A DNA stretch of 64,000 nucleotides from Lyophyllum atratum (lineage: Eukaryota > Basidiomycota > Agaricomycetes > Agaricales > Lyophyllaceae), in contig JACGCN010000041.1 of the NCBI GenBank assembly GCA_014905825.1, positions 1-64,000 on the forward strand, given 5' to 3'. The translations under genes were made by a program, and so were the position numbers. Positions within the stretch are counted from its first letter, which is position 1. Each line of letters opens with the position of its first letter. Below the pieces are notes generated by a model, which worked only from the letters and a program-made list of their open reading frames with translations, was not told where the DNA came from and did no database searches. This document shows positions 42,090 through 50,635 of the stretch, piece by piece.

Positions 42090-43341
42090 ATGGCTCTCGC
42101 ATCCAACCAATTTTCTCTTCCTGACCTCTTGGCGACCTGTCACTTCGAAGGAGGTGTCAACCCACACTACGAGAAGGGAGCCGCCGAGTCTCGCGCCTGG
42201 ATTAACAGCTACAATGTTTTCACCGATAGGAAACGTGCCTTCTTCGTGCTCGGATCGAACGAGTTACTGGTCTCTCATGTTTACAACTATGCCGGTTATG
42301 AAGAATTCAGAACCTGCTGCGACTTCGTACGTATTGGTCTACGGTTGGTTCAAGCACATCTGACAGTTCCACTTGTTCTAGGTCAACGTTCTGTTCGTCT
42401 TTGACGAACTTAGCGACGAGCAAGACGGCAAGGACGCTCTCGCGACAGGCAACATCTTCCTCAACGCCATGAAAGATCCAAACTGGGATGACCGCTCCCT
42501 CTTCTCCCAGATGACCAAAGAGTACGTGACCTACTCTTCCTATATAACGCAATACTCATTAATATCGTATAGGTTTAGAGAGCGTTTTCTCCGGCTATCT
42601 GGACCTAGAGCGGCAGCTCGCTTCGTGAAGCACTGGGAAACCTACTGTGCTGCTGTTATTCAGGAGGCTGAACTCCGCGAACGAGGCGAGATCCTCGACC
42701 TAGATGCATTCATCACATTGCGCAGAGAGAACAGCGCTGTCCGCCTTTGTTACGGCCTCATTGAATTCTGCTGCGGGACAGACCTCCCTGACGAAGTATT
42801 CGAAGACCCAGCGTTCGTGGACATCTACTGGGCAGCTGTAGACCTTGTTTGCTGGGCTAACGTAAGATTCTTACCCTCTTTCCTCCTTGAATGACTGCTG
42901 AACATTGAGGTTTTCTAGGACGTATACTCTTACGACATGGAACAGAGCAAGGGGATCAGTGGAAATAACATTGTCACCGTTCTTATGGTGAACAAAAACA
43001 TGACTCTCCAGGAGGCATCAGATCACGTTGGTGCCGTTTCTAAAGAGCTCATGGACCGCTTCACGTCGGCGCAAGCTCGCCTTCCCTCCTGGGGCGTCTC
43101 CGTTGATTCCGAGGTGGCGCGTTTCATTCAAGGATTGGGTTGTTGGGTAAAAGGCAATCTTGAGTAAGTTCTCTCATTAGAAACAAAAATCCTCTTGCTC
43201 ATACTTTTTTGGTTTAGCTGGAGCTTTGAAACCCAGAGATACTTCGGCGTTAAACACCAAGAGATCAAAGAAACTCGCCTTGTGACTCTCCGGCCACGCG
43301 AGCAACCCGAGGAATCCGACGTAGAGTCGGACATTGAGTGA
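42090..43341 (+). CDS. Sesquiterpene synthase (class I terpene cyclase)
   Basis: This enzyme ionises farnesyl diphosphate and cyclises it to a sesquiterpene. The Asp-rich metal motif is [11 protein letters not shown] (D-E-x-x-D, about 42385-42425). The NSE triad is [13 protein letters not shown] (about 42918-42955), split by an intron after N-D. A C-terminal RY pair ([11 protein letters not shown]) contacts the diphosphate. The size, about 345 residues in five exons, is normal for basidiomycete STS proteins. There is no signal or targeting peptide, so it is cytosolic. It lies tail-to-tail with mevalonate kinase. The product cannot be told from sequence alone. Confidence 0.92.
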
Positions 43342-44032: not shown

Positions 44033-45950
44033 TCAGACGTACAACCAGCGCCCAAGGCTGTCTGCCCACCCGGTAAGCTCAGATATCGAGCTCATCTCAA
44101 AGGACGGGCGAAGCGGCTCACGCTCGCCAGCATCATCCCCTTGCGTAGGTTCTAAGTGCGACTCTGATGCGTCATTAGGGTTCGGCGTTTCTGGAGGAGT
44201 GATTTGACCGGGGACCTGAACTGCGCGGCGAGGAGCAGTAGATCCCTGCTTTGAATGATAGCCATATGGCGACAAGATCCCGAGTCCACTTCCCCCCACA
44301 GATGTGAGATATGGCTCGAAGCCCTCGCGGATCAACTGGTGTATCAGATTTTGAAGGTCCTGTGCCTTGAAATCTGGGGTGAACGTTGCACTGTGAGATC
44401 GATGCCGGTGCTGAATGAAGTCCCCATACGCACCATCCGGCACTAGAGTGACCGCGCACCCTCCTCCGCCGGCACCAGTCAGCTTGGTCGCCAAGCGATA
44501 AGGTTCCGCGGCCGTTGTGCTCTTGATGAATTCGAGCGACTGGTGCGAAACGCCCAGGGTAACGAGATGACCATGGTTTTCATGGATCAGGGCCTTAATG
44601 ACACGTATAAAGTCAACCAGCGTACATAAGATAGCGGCAAGATAACAGCTTACCGACAAGGCGGATAATAATGAATCACGAGGCAGCTCCGGATCCGCCA
44701 AAGCCCTCCTAGCTTCGTCGCTAATGCTCTGGATGGAGTTCATGATACTATTAACCAACTCGGGTTCCTGAGAATACGGCGTACAGTCAGCACCTCAATT
44801 CGCCGTCACCCCTGCCAGCACAAGAACTGCTTACATTGGCCTTTTTCTCGCCCACACCTGCGACCAACTTCTTGGTATCTCGCGGTACCTTGGAATTGGT
44901 CAACAGGAATCTCAAAGACTTGAATCTAGGGAGTAGGTAATCCGTCAGGTACAAGTTCTCAGGGGAAAGTGACGGAAGGAGCTCACCCTTGTATGGCTTC
45001 CATGCCGCTCTTCCTCTCAAATCCAGCACGAGTATACGCTAAGGCACCACCGAAAACTGCGACACTGTTGTCGACCCCACTGGGGTTGCCGTGGAGAACC
45101 TTCTCGGCCACAAAGGCCCAACGATTGACCTCCTCTGCCAGGGCTGGCGGAATAGCTCGGCGGCCTTGGTGTGATATGTGGATGTGCCCTGAGCTCGGTG
45201 ACGTTGGGGCCGGGGGTGCGGGGATACTGATCCGACGTTGGAGCAATAATATGGTTGTTGCCGCACAGGTAGAGAAAGACGCCGAAGACCCGAGGCCAGC
45301 ACCAACTGGAAGTGTTGATCGCGCGGTAAAGTTGAATGACGGCCTTTAATCGAGGGGGTGAGTCTTAGCTAGGTCCGCGGGCAACGAAACTGAACATACC
45401 GCTCTCCCTCGATTGAGAGGATCAAATACATGTAGAGGAATGCCAACGACGCAGCATGGGCAGCCTTCTTGCTTTCCTCGAGCCCTTTCAGCGCCCTTTC
45501 ATTGACAGCGTTAATCAGTTTCTGATCGAGGACCTCCGGGTGTTCGTCGCCCGCAGGCACGGGAGTCACAGCGTCCCACGGCAACGCTTCGATGTCCCAT
45601 TCATGGTAGAAGTTGTCGATGTCGTGGAAATGCACCGATAGTTTGCCGTCATTCCTAGGGGTCGTGAGCCCATAACACCGGAGATCCACTGAGGCTGCAA
45701 TTGCGGTCTAGGGAAAGAGGTAAGTAAGTGATAATTCCCAGGTACGAACAGAAAGGTAAAAAGCAGGTCGCCGACTCTTATGAGGTCAGGAGGCACATGG
45801 AATCGTGCTAATATCCGAGCACTTGAAGTCACTTGATAGAAGAAGATGACTTACCACACCATGAACGACAGCATGCTCCCCAAACAAGATGACTTTCCCG
45901 GGTGCGCTCACGAACCACTCTCTATCCTCCGACAAATGAGCACCGTCGAG
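44033..45950 (-). other. ERG12: Mevalonate kinase module (GHMP kinase)
   Basis: Mevalonate kinase phosphorylates mevalonate to 5-phosphomevalonate in sterol and terpene precursor synthesis. Blocks present are APGKVILFGEHAVVHG, then TAIAASVDLRCYG after a roughly 150-nt intron, then the ATP-binding loop LPVGAGLGSSASFS, then HGNPSGVDNSVAVFGG, and the C-terminal KLTGAGGGGCAVTLV. A tail of about 70 polar residues follows SGLGILSPYGYH and is longer than in most homologues. All catalytic motifs look intact. Confidence 0.9.
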
Positions 45951-47434
45951 TGCCAATTTCTCAACAGCTCGGCTAATTGCCTGGCCAGCCTCATGACCAG
46001 GGACCCGGATGTACCTACTCTGCACAGCATTATACTCGATGGCGCCCGCGTCGACGAGGGCGTGTTCAAGGTCGTCGAGAAGATCATGGACATCTTCGAT
46101 ACCAACGCACAGACGAATAAGGTCTTCGGGCAGGCCACGAGCCGCCCGTGTCGCGGGATCGATGGACGCATGTCTATTCACTCTCATCAGCGATGGTATG
46201 GGACTAGACGGGAAGACAATACGCACGACATGACGCAAGGCATACTGATCAAGCTGTTTACGCAGCCAAAGCTCACACTGATTCCCCAAAGCCTCGTTCC
46301 GCCCACGATTCGCTCGCTGAGAGTTTTGCTCCCAGTCTCGAAGCTGAGCACGGCCCCATTTCCATCGGCAATGCGTTCGTGGATGTCTCGTCCTGGATGA
46401 TCGGCCAGACCGGGATAGTTCACATGGAATCCAAGAGTGTTAAGGTAGTCTGCAACAACGTTCGCGGTGGCTTGCTGCCGGTCCATGCGGAGGGCAAGAG
46501 TCTTAATTCCACGGAGGAGAAGGAAAGAGTCGACAGGTGCGAGGGCGTTGCCAACAGAGTTGATGGTAAACGCCATTTGCTATGCGCACACTTGGCGTGA
46601 ATATAGCGGGTGCGGCATAGTCTCAATTACATACCTTGGCTAAATCGTCCCGGTTGCATGTTATAACTCCAGCCATGAGGTCATGGTGTCCACTAAGATA
46701 CTTTGTAGCGCTGTCATACACAATATCCGCGCCATGCTCTAGGGGGCGTTGTAGGTATGGGCTCATCATAGTATTGTCCACGATGACGATGGCATTTGGG
46801 GCGCGTTCTTTGACATCCTTGCTAATCGTAGCCAGGTCCGCGATTTTTAGCAAGGGATTAGTGGGAGATTCTAGGAGAACCATGGCAGTCTTTGTGGGGT
46901 GGATTAACGCATGCAGGCTCTCGGGATTGGTTGTGTCAACATGGTGAACGGTGACGCCGACATGGCTGCGGATGTAAGTAAGTAGGCGGTTGGTACCACC
47001 GTAAAGATCGTCTCCTGCGATGACTTCGTCACCAGGCTTCAGGATGCGCAGGATAACGTCAAGCGCCGCCATGCCGGATGAAACGACAAACGCATGTTCC
47101 GCGGAGGAGATTTTGGCGATATGGTGCTCTTCATGAAACGTGAGTCAAAAATATCGCAGATCGCGAGGCTTTTCGGCGTACCAAGGTGACTACGAGTAGG
47201 GTTCCCACTTCTGGAATAATCGTACTCGTTGCCGACTCCCTTGAAAGTGGCCGATTGATAAATCGGTACGGAACTACTGCCGTACTGATCTTTCATGTCC
47301 GGGTTCTCTACTGTCGCACACAAAGTCGAGAACCGGTACGGTTTCCTTGACCTCATGGGCGACTCAGGTTCTGGTGTAGGCAGATCATGAATGGGGAGTT
47401 TTGAAGCCGTTTTGGGGTCGATTGAGGGTCCCAT
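44033..47434 (-). CDS. Fused cystathionine beta-lyase / mevalonate kinase gene
   Basis: One continuous spliced frame encodes a PLP-dependent cystathionine beta-lyase followed by mevalonate kinase, about 960 residues in all. Exon 4 (about 46246 to 45930) contains both the end of the lyase (LPEDLIRLCVGIEDV, DLEHALVDAGAI) and the start of the kinase (DREWFVSAPGKVILFGEHAV) with no stop and no Met between them. Only about 40 linker residues separate the two domains. The kinase therefore has no ATG of its own near its conserved N-terminus. Upstream, 197 bp separate the start (47434) from divergent Vps71. Either the cell makes a bifunctional protein, or a base error or unseen alternative first exon hides a gene boundary. 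The two activities belong to unrelated pathways (methionine and isoprenoid synthesis). Confidence 0.75.
45993..47434 (-). other. STR3: Cystathionine beta-lyase module (Cys/Met metabolism PLP enzyme)
   Basis: This enzyme cleaves cystathionine to homocysteine, pyruvate and ammonia. The N-terminus reads FSTLCATVENPDMKDQYGSS and PIYQSATFKG. Cofactor and substrate blocks are SSGMAALDVILRILKPGDE, VLLESPTNPLLKIAD, VDNTMMSPYLQRPL and the Schiff-base lysine in DSATKYLSGHHD. The late block RLWGISVSFGCVNSLISMP followed by SHASI is typical of beta-lyases rather than gamma-synthases. Introns lie near 47182-47131, 46635-46574 and 46294-46247. It looks complete in every conserved block. Confidence 0.88.
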
Positions 47435-47631: not shown

Positions 47632-48325
47632 ATGCCACCAAAGAAAACAAGAGAACATCGTAAGAATCTACCGTTCTCCTCTCTCGGAGTTGCTGATTGC
47701 AATCTCGACGCGCACAGACGCTCGGCAAGCCAATACTGTCGCCGCAGTGGGCCTTGCACCCGAAGTCATCGCTAAACGGACCAAGCGACATCTCGACGAA
47801 CTTGAGGTACGCCTCATGTGCATCCTGCCCTTTGCCTGACAACGCATTACACTTTCGAAGCGATCTAATTATGCCGAGCCTACCCTTCTCGCTGGCGAGG
47901 ACGACGAGGAGGGAGGGAAATCTGCTAAAGGACGCGCACGTCAAACCATCTCCGACAAACGCAACCTCAGCATTGCGGGCAGCTCCGCGGCGGCGAAGAA
48001 GAAGAAGTCAACCATGAATGTGCGAACTGCTTTACTTTACCGCAAAAGCCTCGCAACCCTCATTGACGAATCGGTACGGGTGTCTCCTGCTCCTTGTATG
48101 CTTTGTTAAGCTCCTTCTGGCCTGTAGAATATCGCGTCTCTTCCTGCGTCAATTCCAACGTATCTAACTGCACTCACGGCACCCTCGCCATACCCTTCCC
48201 GAAGCCTTTGTTCCGTTTGTGGATACTGGGGGGCGTACAAATGCCGACGGTGTGCCATGCCTTATTGTGATCACAACTGTGAAAGTGTTCACGCTGAAGC
48301 GCGTTGCGAAAGAAGGGTCGCCTGA
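47632..48325 (+). CDS. VPS71: SWR1 complex subunit Vps71/Swc6 (zinc finger HIT)
   Basis: This subunit of the SWR1 remodeller helps exchange H2A for H2A.Z. Four exons join in frame: MPPKKTREH, then HARQANTVAAVGLAPEV with RTKRHLDELE, then a central exon with SDKRNLSIAG and LLYRKSLATLIDES, then the zf-HIT exon. The zinc finger is SLCSVCGYWGAYKCRRC with AMPYCDHNCESVHAEARC, giving the expected paired Cys/His ligands (about 48205-48315). The protein is about 180 residues and ends RVA. The exons are short and lie in different frames, so the gene is easy to miss. Confidence 0.88.
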
Positions 48326-48698: not shown

Positions 48699-50635
48699 TC
48701 AAACGAGTTTGGCCAAGTTGAGCTTGTTCTTGGTGACGTCTGTCGAGAAGTACGCGTTCTTCAAGAACACGTCGCCGACCTAAGTAAGCACACAGAGAAT
48801 AAGCAAACCTCTTGCCACTACATAGCAAAAGGAACACATACCAGCCACTCAGTTGCACCTCCAATATTACCTGGTGAAATACCCGAAATGCAGTCACCCG
48901 TCGGGTCAGCAGGGTCAATGGGCTGGAACGCAATATCCCTCGGGTCAATTGAAAACGCCGCGCCCCCAAACGTCAACGCAACGCTCGCGGTCGTCGTGCA
49001 CGGGACCGTGAATCCGCCTTGACCGTCCGACTTCGCGCCCTCGATGTTCTGGTGGACAGCCGCTACGTCGGCGGCGGGTGCGATGATGAGGGTCGTACCG
49101 GTGTCGAGGATGGCTGTGCGGCCCTGCAGGCCGACGTCGGTTCCATCGACAGAGACGGCGTCCATGGCACCTTCCCAGAAGCCTTGCTTGCTGACGTTGT
49201 CTAGAGTGACGAGGGTCTTGGGGTCGAATTTAGTGGTGTCGAGGCCGCTGTGAAGTTAGGATGAGTGAACGAAAGAGCTGCTTTGCAGGTAAAGGGCCTA
49301 CCCGAAGGTGATTTCGCCGTCGTTCTTGTTGTCAGCGACACGAGAAATCTTGTATGACGTGATGGCTTCTTTCACCAAGCCCGCTTTTGCCATCGCCTCG
49401 ATCGGTGTCAGGGTTTGTTGCTGAGAGAGCGTCTATATAATCGTTGTCAGTCTCACCGATGACCAAGGTAATTGAAGTGTAGATTCACCGATTGTGCAAG
49501 TCCCATGAGCCCGTCGAAAGAGGTTGAGTCATCCGAGAATTCAACACTCTCCGTGGTCGCAACGCCAAAAGTGTGGGCCTTGAGTGCAATACCTGCGACC
49601 ACAATATCGTCCGTAATAATGCTTCCCGAGACCTGGCCAGTTCCGTATGTAACTTGAAAGGGCGTTTGAGCGTCCTGGAAAGAGCTTGAGCCCTGGGGAC
49701 CGAGGAATTTGTGATTTCCCTACGAGCGAGGTTGATTAGCTCTTGGCCATTCTTACGTATGTGCAGAACGTACGCATCCACCGCCAGCGTCCGATTTGCA
49801 ATTTTCAGCTCCAACCCACAAGTCAGCTGATCCTGAATCCATCAGGATCGAGAAGTCCTGGGGTGGCGTGCCCATCTGGACAGTTGCGAGGTAGCCAAGG
49901 TCATTTGCTCTGTCATGCAAGATCAGCTAAGGGGAGCTATGGTTGAGGCAAATTTCTTACTCAATGTCAAGCCCCAGCGAATTGTCCGCAGCTGGCTTGT
50001 TGGCGACGGTTACATCGGGAACGGCGGCACTGAAAACATGGGTCGTGAGTTCATGAAATAGTAACGAACAATGGAATGAATACCCAGCAGCACCTGCACC
50101 GGCACCTGCACCTGCACCTGCACCTACACCAGCACCAGCACCAGCACCTTTGCCTTTGCCGTTACCCTTAGCCTTGCCATGACCTTGTATGTTTCCGTTT
50201 CTATCCTTTGCAGCAGCTGAAGCCAACACAGCGCCCGAGCCTGCGGTTTTAGACTTTGACTTCGGCTTGGGGACACCGATACGGTTATACCGTCTCTCAA
50301 GGCCGTCCTCGCCTTCGACGGCAAGGACCCGCTTGCGGAGGTTTTCGCGCAGCTCTTCCGTGGTGGGCGCACGTCGACCTGTCATACGGGCGTAGCGCCG
50401 TTGGCTGCGGTTGATGTTCTGTTGGTGTGCCTGCCCAAACTATTATTAGTATTGAGATTGAATTCGGAAACATAAAGGTGCGCACAATAAGAGGGTGGGC
50501 AGTGGACCGTTGCTCAGCCCGCTTGAGCGGGAGGGTTACCATGCCAGGCATTGGGTTTGAGTTCGCAGCGGGCAAGGCATCGACGGCAAGGGCAAGCAGA
50601 ACACCTGCAAGAAGTGCGGAGAATTGGATTTGCAT
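48699..50635 (-). CDS. Secreted pepsin-like aspartic protease (A1 family)
   Basis: The signal peptide is MQIQFSALLAGVLLALAVDA. A basic propeptide (INRSQRRYARM, RENLRKRVL) follows. Next comes a low-complexity Gly/Ala/Lys linker encoded by GGTGCA-type hexanucleotides (about 50090-50160). The catalytic domain begins near LGLDIEANDLGYLATVQMG. The two active-site aspartates are in MDSGSADLWVG and LDTGTTLI. The protein ends STDVTKNKLNLAKLV. A first frame start at 50653 is TTG, so the ATG at 50635 is used. At least seven exons join in frame. The enzyme is expected to be secreted, and the Gly/Ala linker may be removed with the propeptide. Confidence 0.92.
50090..50165. repeat. GCACCT/GCACCA short tandem repeat inside the protease gene
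   Basis: Imperfect 6-bp units (GCACCT, GCACCA and variants) run for about 70 bp and encode alternating Gly-Ala on the minus strand. Unit number probably varies between strains. Confidence 0.8.

What the first reader, a model, noticed from the sequence alone, without database searches (positions are those of the whole stretch)
44033..47434. In-frame fusion of cystathionine beta-lyase and mevalonate kinase
Seen: exon 4 of the minus-strand gene runs from the last conserved block of the lyase into the first conserved block of mevalonate kinase without a stop, frameshift or any Met; the gap is only about 130 nt. Known: these enzymes act in methionine and isoprenoid synthesis and are separate in model fungi. 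Inference: a bifunctional protein, or a polycistron-like arrangement processed later. It could link sulfur amino-acid and isoprenoid flux. To my knowledge this is not a standard architecture.
Basis: partly seen in the sequence, partly recalled or inferred. Interest (0 to 1): 0.85.

Follow-up and report, generated by a model that had tools for sequence, protein, structure and literature searches.

The report
Known basidiomycete lyase–kinase fusion gene
One mushroom gene really does encode a methionine-pathway enzyme fused to an isoprenoid-pathway enzyme, but this fusion is widespread in basidiomycete fungi and was described in 2012, so it is ordinary for this group.

Summary
A 9-exon minus-strand gene (47434-44033) encodes one 949-aa chain: cystathionine beta-lyase (CBL), a linker of about 50 aa, then mevalonate kinase (MVK), with no stop, frameshift or in-frame Met between the modules. 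The other haplotype keeps the same frame. A protein search of the genome found MVK only at these two alleles. Catalytic residues of both halves are nearly invariant in 231 aligned fused relatives.

The claim that this is not a standard architecture is wrong. Searches list the same fusion in many Agaricomycotina, Ustilaginomycotina and Pucciniomycotina. Of the 120 kinase-sized proteins listed, those with the first kinase motif, no lyase tail and an organism name are not basidiomycetes. Two 2012 papers reported the fusion: 'metC-MVK' (PMC3342255) and STR3 with a mevalonate kinase domain (PMC3468542). Two later papers repeat it (PMC3720577, PMC4129116).

Most likely it is a bifunctional protein with two independent active sites on a variable tether, fixed once early in Basidiomycota. 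Coupling of sulfur and isoprenoid flux is untested. Already known; low interest. In passing: a terpene synthase gene lies tail-to-tail beside it.

The parts
44033..47434 (-). CBL-MVK fusion gene, 9 exons: 47434-47182, 47128-46635, 46579-46227, 46173-45855, 45707-45400, 45343-44987, 44925-44835, 44767-44654, 44593-44033
   Evidence: spliced CDS of 2850 nt, 949 aa plus stop; same frame in the C97 allele
46056..47311 (-). cystathionine beta-lyase module, residues 42-406 (exons 1-4, introns included)
   Evidence: TIGR01329 543.5 bits against cut-off 487.5, residues 42-410; PF01053 E 8.8e-130; best solved chain 1ibj, E 6.8e-107
45909..46055 (-). in-frame linker inside exon 4, residues 407-455, no Met
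   Evidence: linker 36-136 aa (median 50) in 232 aligned sequences, lowest mean identity of the five segments measured
44036..45908 (-). mevalonate kinase module, residues 456-949 (exons 4-9, introns included)
   Evidence: PF00288 29.5 bits against cut-off 22.3; best solved chain 1kvk mevalonate kinase, E 2.2e-60; GHMP motifs near-invariant in 232 sequences
45855..46173 (-). exon 4, which joins the two modules

Best explanation
This is the basidiomycete CBL-MVK ('metC-MVK', STR3-ERG12) fusion gene. One mRNA is translated into one chain of about 102 kDa. The N-terminal half is a PLP-dependent cystathionine beta-lyase (cystathionine to homocysteine, pyruvate and ammonia). The C-terminal half is a GHMP-type mevalonate kinase (mevalonate plus ATP to phosphomevalonate). 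The two active sites most likely work independently on a flexible tether. The fusion arose once, early in Basidiomycota, and replaced the separate genes, so the organism depends on it for mevalonate kinase. Shown here: the continuous frame in two haplotypes, conserved catalytic residues, no second MVK found, wide occurrence. Inferred: both activities, one uncleaved product in this organism, single origin. A regulatory benefit is unknown.
For: Continuous 949-aa spliced frame, kept in the second haplotype with 26 synonymous and 8 non-synonymous codon differences. TIGR01329 eukaryotic CBL equivalog above its cut-off. Both halves match solved CBL and MVK chains. In 232 aligned sequences the PLP lysine K227, MVK K460 and E656 are in 232; MVK S595 and D667 are in 231. 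The MVK protein search of the genome at E up to 1 gave 12 matches, all at the two alleles. In one search the 120 listed of 604 are 815-939 aa, all carry the CBL domain and 117 carry PF00288. (120 listed of 1630) shows the fusion in named Ustilaginomycotina, Pucciniomycotina, Tremellomycetes, Dacrymycetes and Bartheletia (class names recalled except Bartheletia). In an MVK tree, 32 fused and 20 stand-alone sequences, both chosen by hand, separate with support 0.994. CBL and MVK pairwise distances correlate at r = 0.90 over 232 sequences, as shared descent predicts. A transcript from a relative: a Pleurocybella porrigens mycelium unigene holds both domains (PMC3720577, passages).
Against: There is no RNA or protein evidence from this organism. 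The 231 aligned relatives were picked up by full-length fused queries, so their being fused is partly by selection; one search was the search that allowed shorter proteins. An ATG inside intron 3 (46187) could start a kinase-only transcript, and with any GT-AG pair 91 alternative splices inside exon 4 would reach the kinase frame, so sequence alone cannot exclude one. 87 of 232 sequences have a Met in the linker region. The PF00288 search of the genome did not list the window copy itself and found its allele only at E 8e-4, so that search is weak on intron-split genes; only bears on the absence of a second MVK. AlphaFold gives pTM 0.55 for the whole chain, so domain packing is unresolved. The 50 rows of the Foldseek listing were CBL-family chains only.
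Confidence: 0.94

Rival explanations
1. The kinase is also, or mainly, made from its own transcript, starting at the ATG in intron 3 (46187) or through another splice.
For: The ATG inside intron 3 reads in frame into the kinase, and three spliced versions with consensus-like donors also stay open. With any GT-AG pair, 91 open alternatives exist in exon 4; no chance expectation was computed, and I do not count this as evidence by itself.
Against: No in-frame ATG lies in exon 4. Of 19 kinase-sized models inspected, 17 are fragments of the fusion: 9 begin in the CBL tail or linker and 8 begin downstream of the first kinase motif; P0201 is unclear and P0209 looks stand-alone but is unnamed. A fused transcript is reported for a relative (PMC3720577).
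Confidence: 0.04
2. The protein is made fused and then cleaved in the linker, as a processed polyprotein.
For: The linker has the lowest mean identity to the window (0.40, against 0.79 for CBL and 0.65 for MVK), and 3 of the 8 amino-acid differences between haplotypes fall in it.
Against: No shared cleavage motif or 2A-like motif was seen by eye in the 20 linkers printed; no systematic motif search was run. Variable linkers are equally expected of a simple tether.
Confidence: 0.03
3. An assembly or sequencing error joined two neighbouring genes.
For: None found.
Against: The frame is intact in a second, differing haplotype contig and in the independent genomes behind.
Confidence: 0.005

Closest known systems
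metC-MVK fusion of basidiomycetes (Liu et al. 2012, PMC3342255; section 10 and passages seen; the author name is from the passage of PMC4129116)
   Same: CBL at the N terminus, MVK at the C terminus, about 886 aa on average, only MVK-like gene in the basidiomycetes analysed.
   Different: Nothing found. The paper excepts Laccaria bicolor (not checked here) and places the origin in the ancestor of Basidiomycota.
Basidiomycete STR3 orthologues with a C-terminal mevalonate kinase domain (PMC3468542; passages seen)
   Same: Same architecture; MVK not found as a stand-alone protein in basidiomycetes.
   Different: That paper excepts Postia placenta; one search lists a 909-aa fused protein from Postia placenta (P0113), so the exception was probably a gene-model problem.
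Arabidopsis cystathionine beta-lyase, 1ibj
   Same: CBL sequence and fold (E 6.8e-107; Foldseek rank 1, 48% identity for the Lyophyllum model).
   Different: The chain holds a lyase only.
Mevalonate kinase, 1kvk
   Same: Residues 3-367 of the 430-residue kinase half match (E 2.2e-60).
   Different: The chain holds a kinase only; the fused kinase has extra residues before the motif RRAIPPALAEEVN.

Membership tests
Eukaryotic cystathionine beta-lyase (TIGR01329) | Score above the curated equivalog cut-off | tested here: met
   543.5 bits against 487.5
Eukaryotic cystathionine beta-lyase (TIGR01329) | PLP-binding lysine in S-A-T-K and neighbouring conserved residues (roles recalled) | tested here: met
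   K227, Y127, N175, D202, S224, T226, R387 in 232 of 232; Y73 and R75 in 228 of 232, the other 4 gaps; Y71 is F in 51
Eukaryotic cystathionine beta-lyase (TIGR01329) | Cleaves cystathionine to homocysteine | not testable with these tools
   needs an enzyme assay
Mevalonate kinase (GHMP kinase superfamily) | GHMP motifs and catalytic Lys, Ser, Glu, Asp (roles recalled) | tested here: met
   K460 and E656 in 232 of 232; S595 and D667 in 231 of 232; PF00288 above cut-off, PF08544 at its cut-off, 21 of 21 bits
Mevalonate kinase (GHMP kinase superfamily) | Closest to mevalonate kinases rather than other GHMP kinases | tested here: met
   of 19 solved sequences matched, the best 10 are named mevalonate kinase; the other 9 are 8 galactokinases and one more mevalonate kinase
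Mevalonate kinase (GHMP kinase superfamily) | Phosphorylates mevalonate | not testable with these tools
   needs an enzyme assay or rescue of a yeast erg12 mutant
Basidiomycete metC-MVK fusion | CBL and MVK in one continuous chain of about 900 aa | tested here: met
   949 aa; relatives of 815-939 aa
Basidiomycete metC-MVK fusion | Only mevalonate kinase in the genome | tested here: met
   12 matches at E up to 1, all at the two alleles; the tool scores only its best candidates, 7 of 7 here
Basidiomycete metC-MVK fusion | 16-aa insertion in the kinase half, in 7 of 12 species of the paper | tested here: inconclusive
   an insertion relative to 1kvk is visible, but the paper's sequence is only in a figure that was not held

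The most novel reading that the evidence does not exclude
The fusion is kept across the phylum because it couples the two pathways physically or through regulation: for example a CBL tetramer that sets the assembly, amount or feedback response of mevalonate kinase, tying isoprenoid and sterol supply to methionine and methyl-donor supply.
Probability: 0.12. Interest if true: 0.55.

Novelty: already known. Interest (0 to 1): 0.18.

Why it matters
The fusion looks like a shared character of Basidiomycota, seen in the three large subphyla sampled. The biological reason is still open: the 2012 Ganoderma paper said its reason and function were under study, and the listings of seven paper searches (two searches showed 20 of 149 and 20 of 110 papers) showed no title or abstract start reporting a functional study of it. 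Because the only mevalonate kinase found is fused to a methionine-pathway enzyme, genetics on either activity in these fungi must take account of the other.

Tried and rejected
Rejected: gene-model artefact (second haplotype and relatives keep the frame). Rejected: a separate MVK elsewhere in the genome. The other GHMP places are homoserine kinase (L001) and diphosphomevalonate decarboxylase (L003) above cut-off (L002 and L004 look like their allelic pairs by score and were not scanned). A third group (L005-L007) gave an 83-aa exon that scored slightly better to a mevalonate kinase model (29.4 bits, cut-off 163) than to galactokinase (26.8 bits), which spoke against my reading; the neighbouring frame of L005 carries the galactokinase signature above cut-off (PF10509, 34 against 23.1 bits; weak TIGR00131), so I take it as galactokinase.

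Stand-alone basidiomycete MVKs: by a motif script over all 120 listed, 62 hold the first kinase motif, 27 of them with lyase tail upstream and 35 without. Of the 35, P0126, P0161 and P0187 are linker fragments; the rows with organism names are Mucoromycota or Ascomycota (phyla recalled, Umbelopsis checked); the rest, including P0201 and P0209, are unnamed, so a stand-alone basidiomycete kinase among them is not excluded. The script's lyase-tail test is a crude pattern.

Short contigs (P0007, P0010, P0011, P0089, P0111: frames of 877-925 aa on contigs of 2.9-3.1 kb) look like spliced transcript assemblies, because eight introns of about 50 nt or more would not fit.

Led nowhere: Foldseek and AlphaFold domain orientation (model of P0001, 62 fused and 5 stand-alone sequences in the alignment). 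A C-terminal two-tryptophan tail is in 227 of 232 fusions and 1 of 19 stand-alone kinases by a loose pattern, but many of the stand-alone kinases printed there end in a similar W-x-F/Y-W stretch, so no claim is made. In one search the fused clade showed support 0.398, a label misplaced by re-rooting; the split in the original tree is 0.994. The X. dendrorhous genome paper (PMC4393869, passages) lists ERG12 and its main text has no hit for 'cystathionine' or 'fused'.

Full report
What is there. The minus-strand gene 47434-44033 has nine exons and eight GT-AG introns. Its spliced CDS is 2850 nt and gives 949 aa, 102.5 kDa. Residues 42-410 match the eukaryotic cystathionine beta-lyase equivalog TIGR01329 above its cut-off. 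The kinase half matches PF00288 and, in the Protein Data Bank, mevalonate kinases first. Exon 4 (46173-45855) contains the lyase end, a 49-residue linker and the first kinase motif in one frame. There is no Met between residues 366 and 566. Exon 4 holds five ATGs before the kinase motif, none in its frame; the only ATG of 46634-45908 that reads straight in lies inside intron 3.

Is it real. The assembly holds a second copy, C97:1673810-1677209, 98% identical, with flanks in the same order at 96% and 98%; I read these as two haplotypes. The second copy has the same 949-aa frame. The coding sequences differ at 35 of 2850 bases: 26 codons synonymous and 8 non-synonymous. Three of the 8 are in the linker, beside 4 synonymous ones there, so the excess of synonymous changes comes from the modules, not the linker. 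A protein search of the genome with the kinase half at E up to 1 gave 12 matches, all exons of these two alleles. The family search with PF00288 is a weaker test: it missed the window copy itself and found its allele only at E 8e-4. It did find homoserine kinase, diphosphomevalonate decarboxylase and a galactokinase. The lyase half found weaker relatives elsewhere at 32-40% identity, so other Cys/Met-metabolism paralogs exist.

How widespread. Searching with the full chain (candidates limited by the tool to 0.55-1.75 times its length), 604 proteins passed E 0.001 and 120 were listed. All 120 carry the CBL domain and are 815-939 aa; 117 also carry PF00288. The named ones are, by recalled taxonomy, Agaricomycetes of several orders. 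The top hit is Lyophyllum shimeji, 88% identical (family Lyophyllaceae), so this genome is probably from that family or near it. A search from a more distant fusion listed 120 of 1630 and adds Ustilaginomycotina (Ustilago, Malassezia, Tilletia, Exobasidium), Pucciniomycotina (Rhodotorula, Sporobolomyces, Microbotryum, Mixia, Atractiella), Tremellomycetes (Cryptococcus, Kwoniella), Dacrymycetes (Calocera, Dacryopinax) and Bartheletia (classes recalled except Bartheletia). These two searches could hardly show stand-alone kinases. A third search with the kinase half alone, which excludes the full fusion by length, listed 120 of 5908. Its top rows are fragments of fusions; the first full-length stand-alone kinase with a name is Umbelopsis (Mucoromycota), followed by Ascomycota and more Mucoromycota. 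Of 35 rows with the first kinase motif and no lyase tail, none with a name is a basidiomycete, but about a dozen have no name. In an MVK tree of 32 fused and 20 stand-alone sequences chosen by hand, the two sets separate with support 0.994. The simplest account is one fusion early in Basidiomycota. I did not test every class.

How it likely works. In 232 aligned sequences (the window, all 120 and the 111 new ones) both halves are present in every row, partly by selection. The PLP lysine and the kinase lysine and glutamate are in 232 of 232; the kinase serine and aspartate are in 231. The linker varies from 36 to 136 aa and has the lowest mean identity of the five segments measured; 87 of 232 have a Met in it. 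AlphaFold on the Lyophyllum protein (67 sequences, 5 of them stand-alone kinases) gives two confident domains (mean pLDDT 82.5) with overall pTM 0.55, as expected of two modules on a loose tether. The two reactions share no intermediate (established biochemistry), so substrate channelling is unlikely. I infer independent catalysis on one chain, made in fixed equal amounts. Coupling between the pathways is possible but unsupported.

What is known. PMC3342255 (2012; section 10 and passages seen) described metC-MVK in 12 basidiomycetes but not L. bicolor, noted that it is the only MVK there, and placed its origin in the ancestor of Basidiomycota. PMC3468542 (2012, rice blast; passages seen) found the mevalonate kinase domain on basidiomycete STR3 orthologues and no stand-alone MVK in basidiomycetes. 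PMC3720577 reports a fused unigene in Pleurocybella mycelium (passages), and PMC4129116 a 918-aa fused gene in Lignosus (passages). Two metagenome proteins (P0262, P0325) carry the name 'cystathionine beta-lyase/mevalonate kinase'. The finding is therefore already known. One small point on print: Postia placenta, an exception in PMC3468542, has a 909-aa fused protein.

Verdict. Observation confirmed; 'bifunctional fusion' supported at sequence level; 'unusual architecture' not supported. Low interest as a discovery; the reason for the fusion remains an open, testable question.

Noticed in passing
window about 42090-43341 (+): A terpene synthase gene (PF19086, E 1.5e-30 for 42382-42891; motif-like DELSDE and NDVYSYDMEQ, motif roles recalled) lies tail-to-tail with the fusion gene, roughly 0.7-0.9 kb from its stop. 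Exon ends were not worked out, and whether the neighbourhood is conserved was not testable here.
   Followed up: partly
window 48128-48322 (+): zf-HIT domain fragment (PF04438) of a gene that runs away from the fusion gene on the other strand.
   Followed up: no
window 48821-49255 (-): Aspartyl protease fragment (PF00026).
   Followed up: no
window 46187 (-), inside intron 3: An ATG within the intron reads in frame into the lyase tail, linker and kinase; it could start a shorter isoform if the intron were retained or a promoter lay nearby.
   Followed up: partly
P0132, P0140, P0141, P0146 (listing): Lentinula detonsa, L. aff. detonsa and L. guzmanii have shorter lyase-kinase or kinase models only 52-58% identical to the window kinase, perhaps a second diverged copy in that genus.
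   Followed up: no
P0143: A database entry called mevalonate kinase of Inonotus obliquus (308 aa) starts just before the equivalent of exon 5 and lacks the first kinase motif; it is probably a fragment of the fusion.
   Followed up: partly
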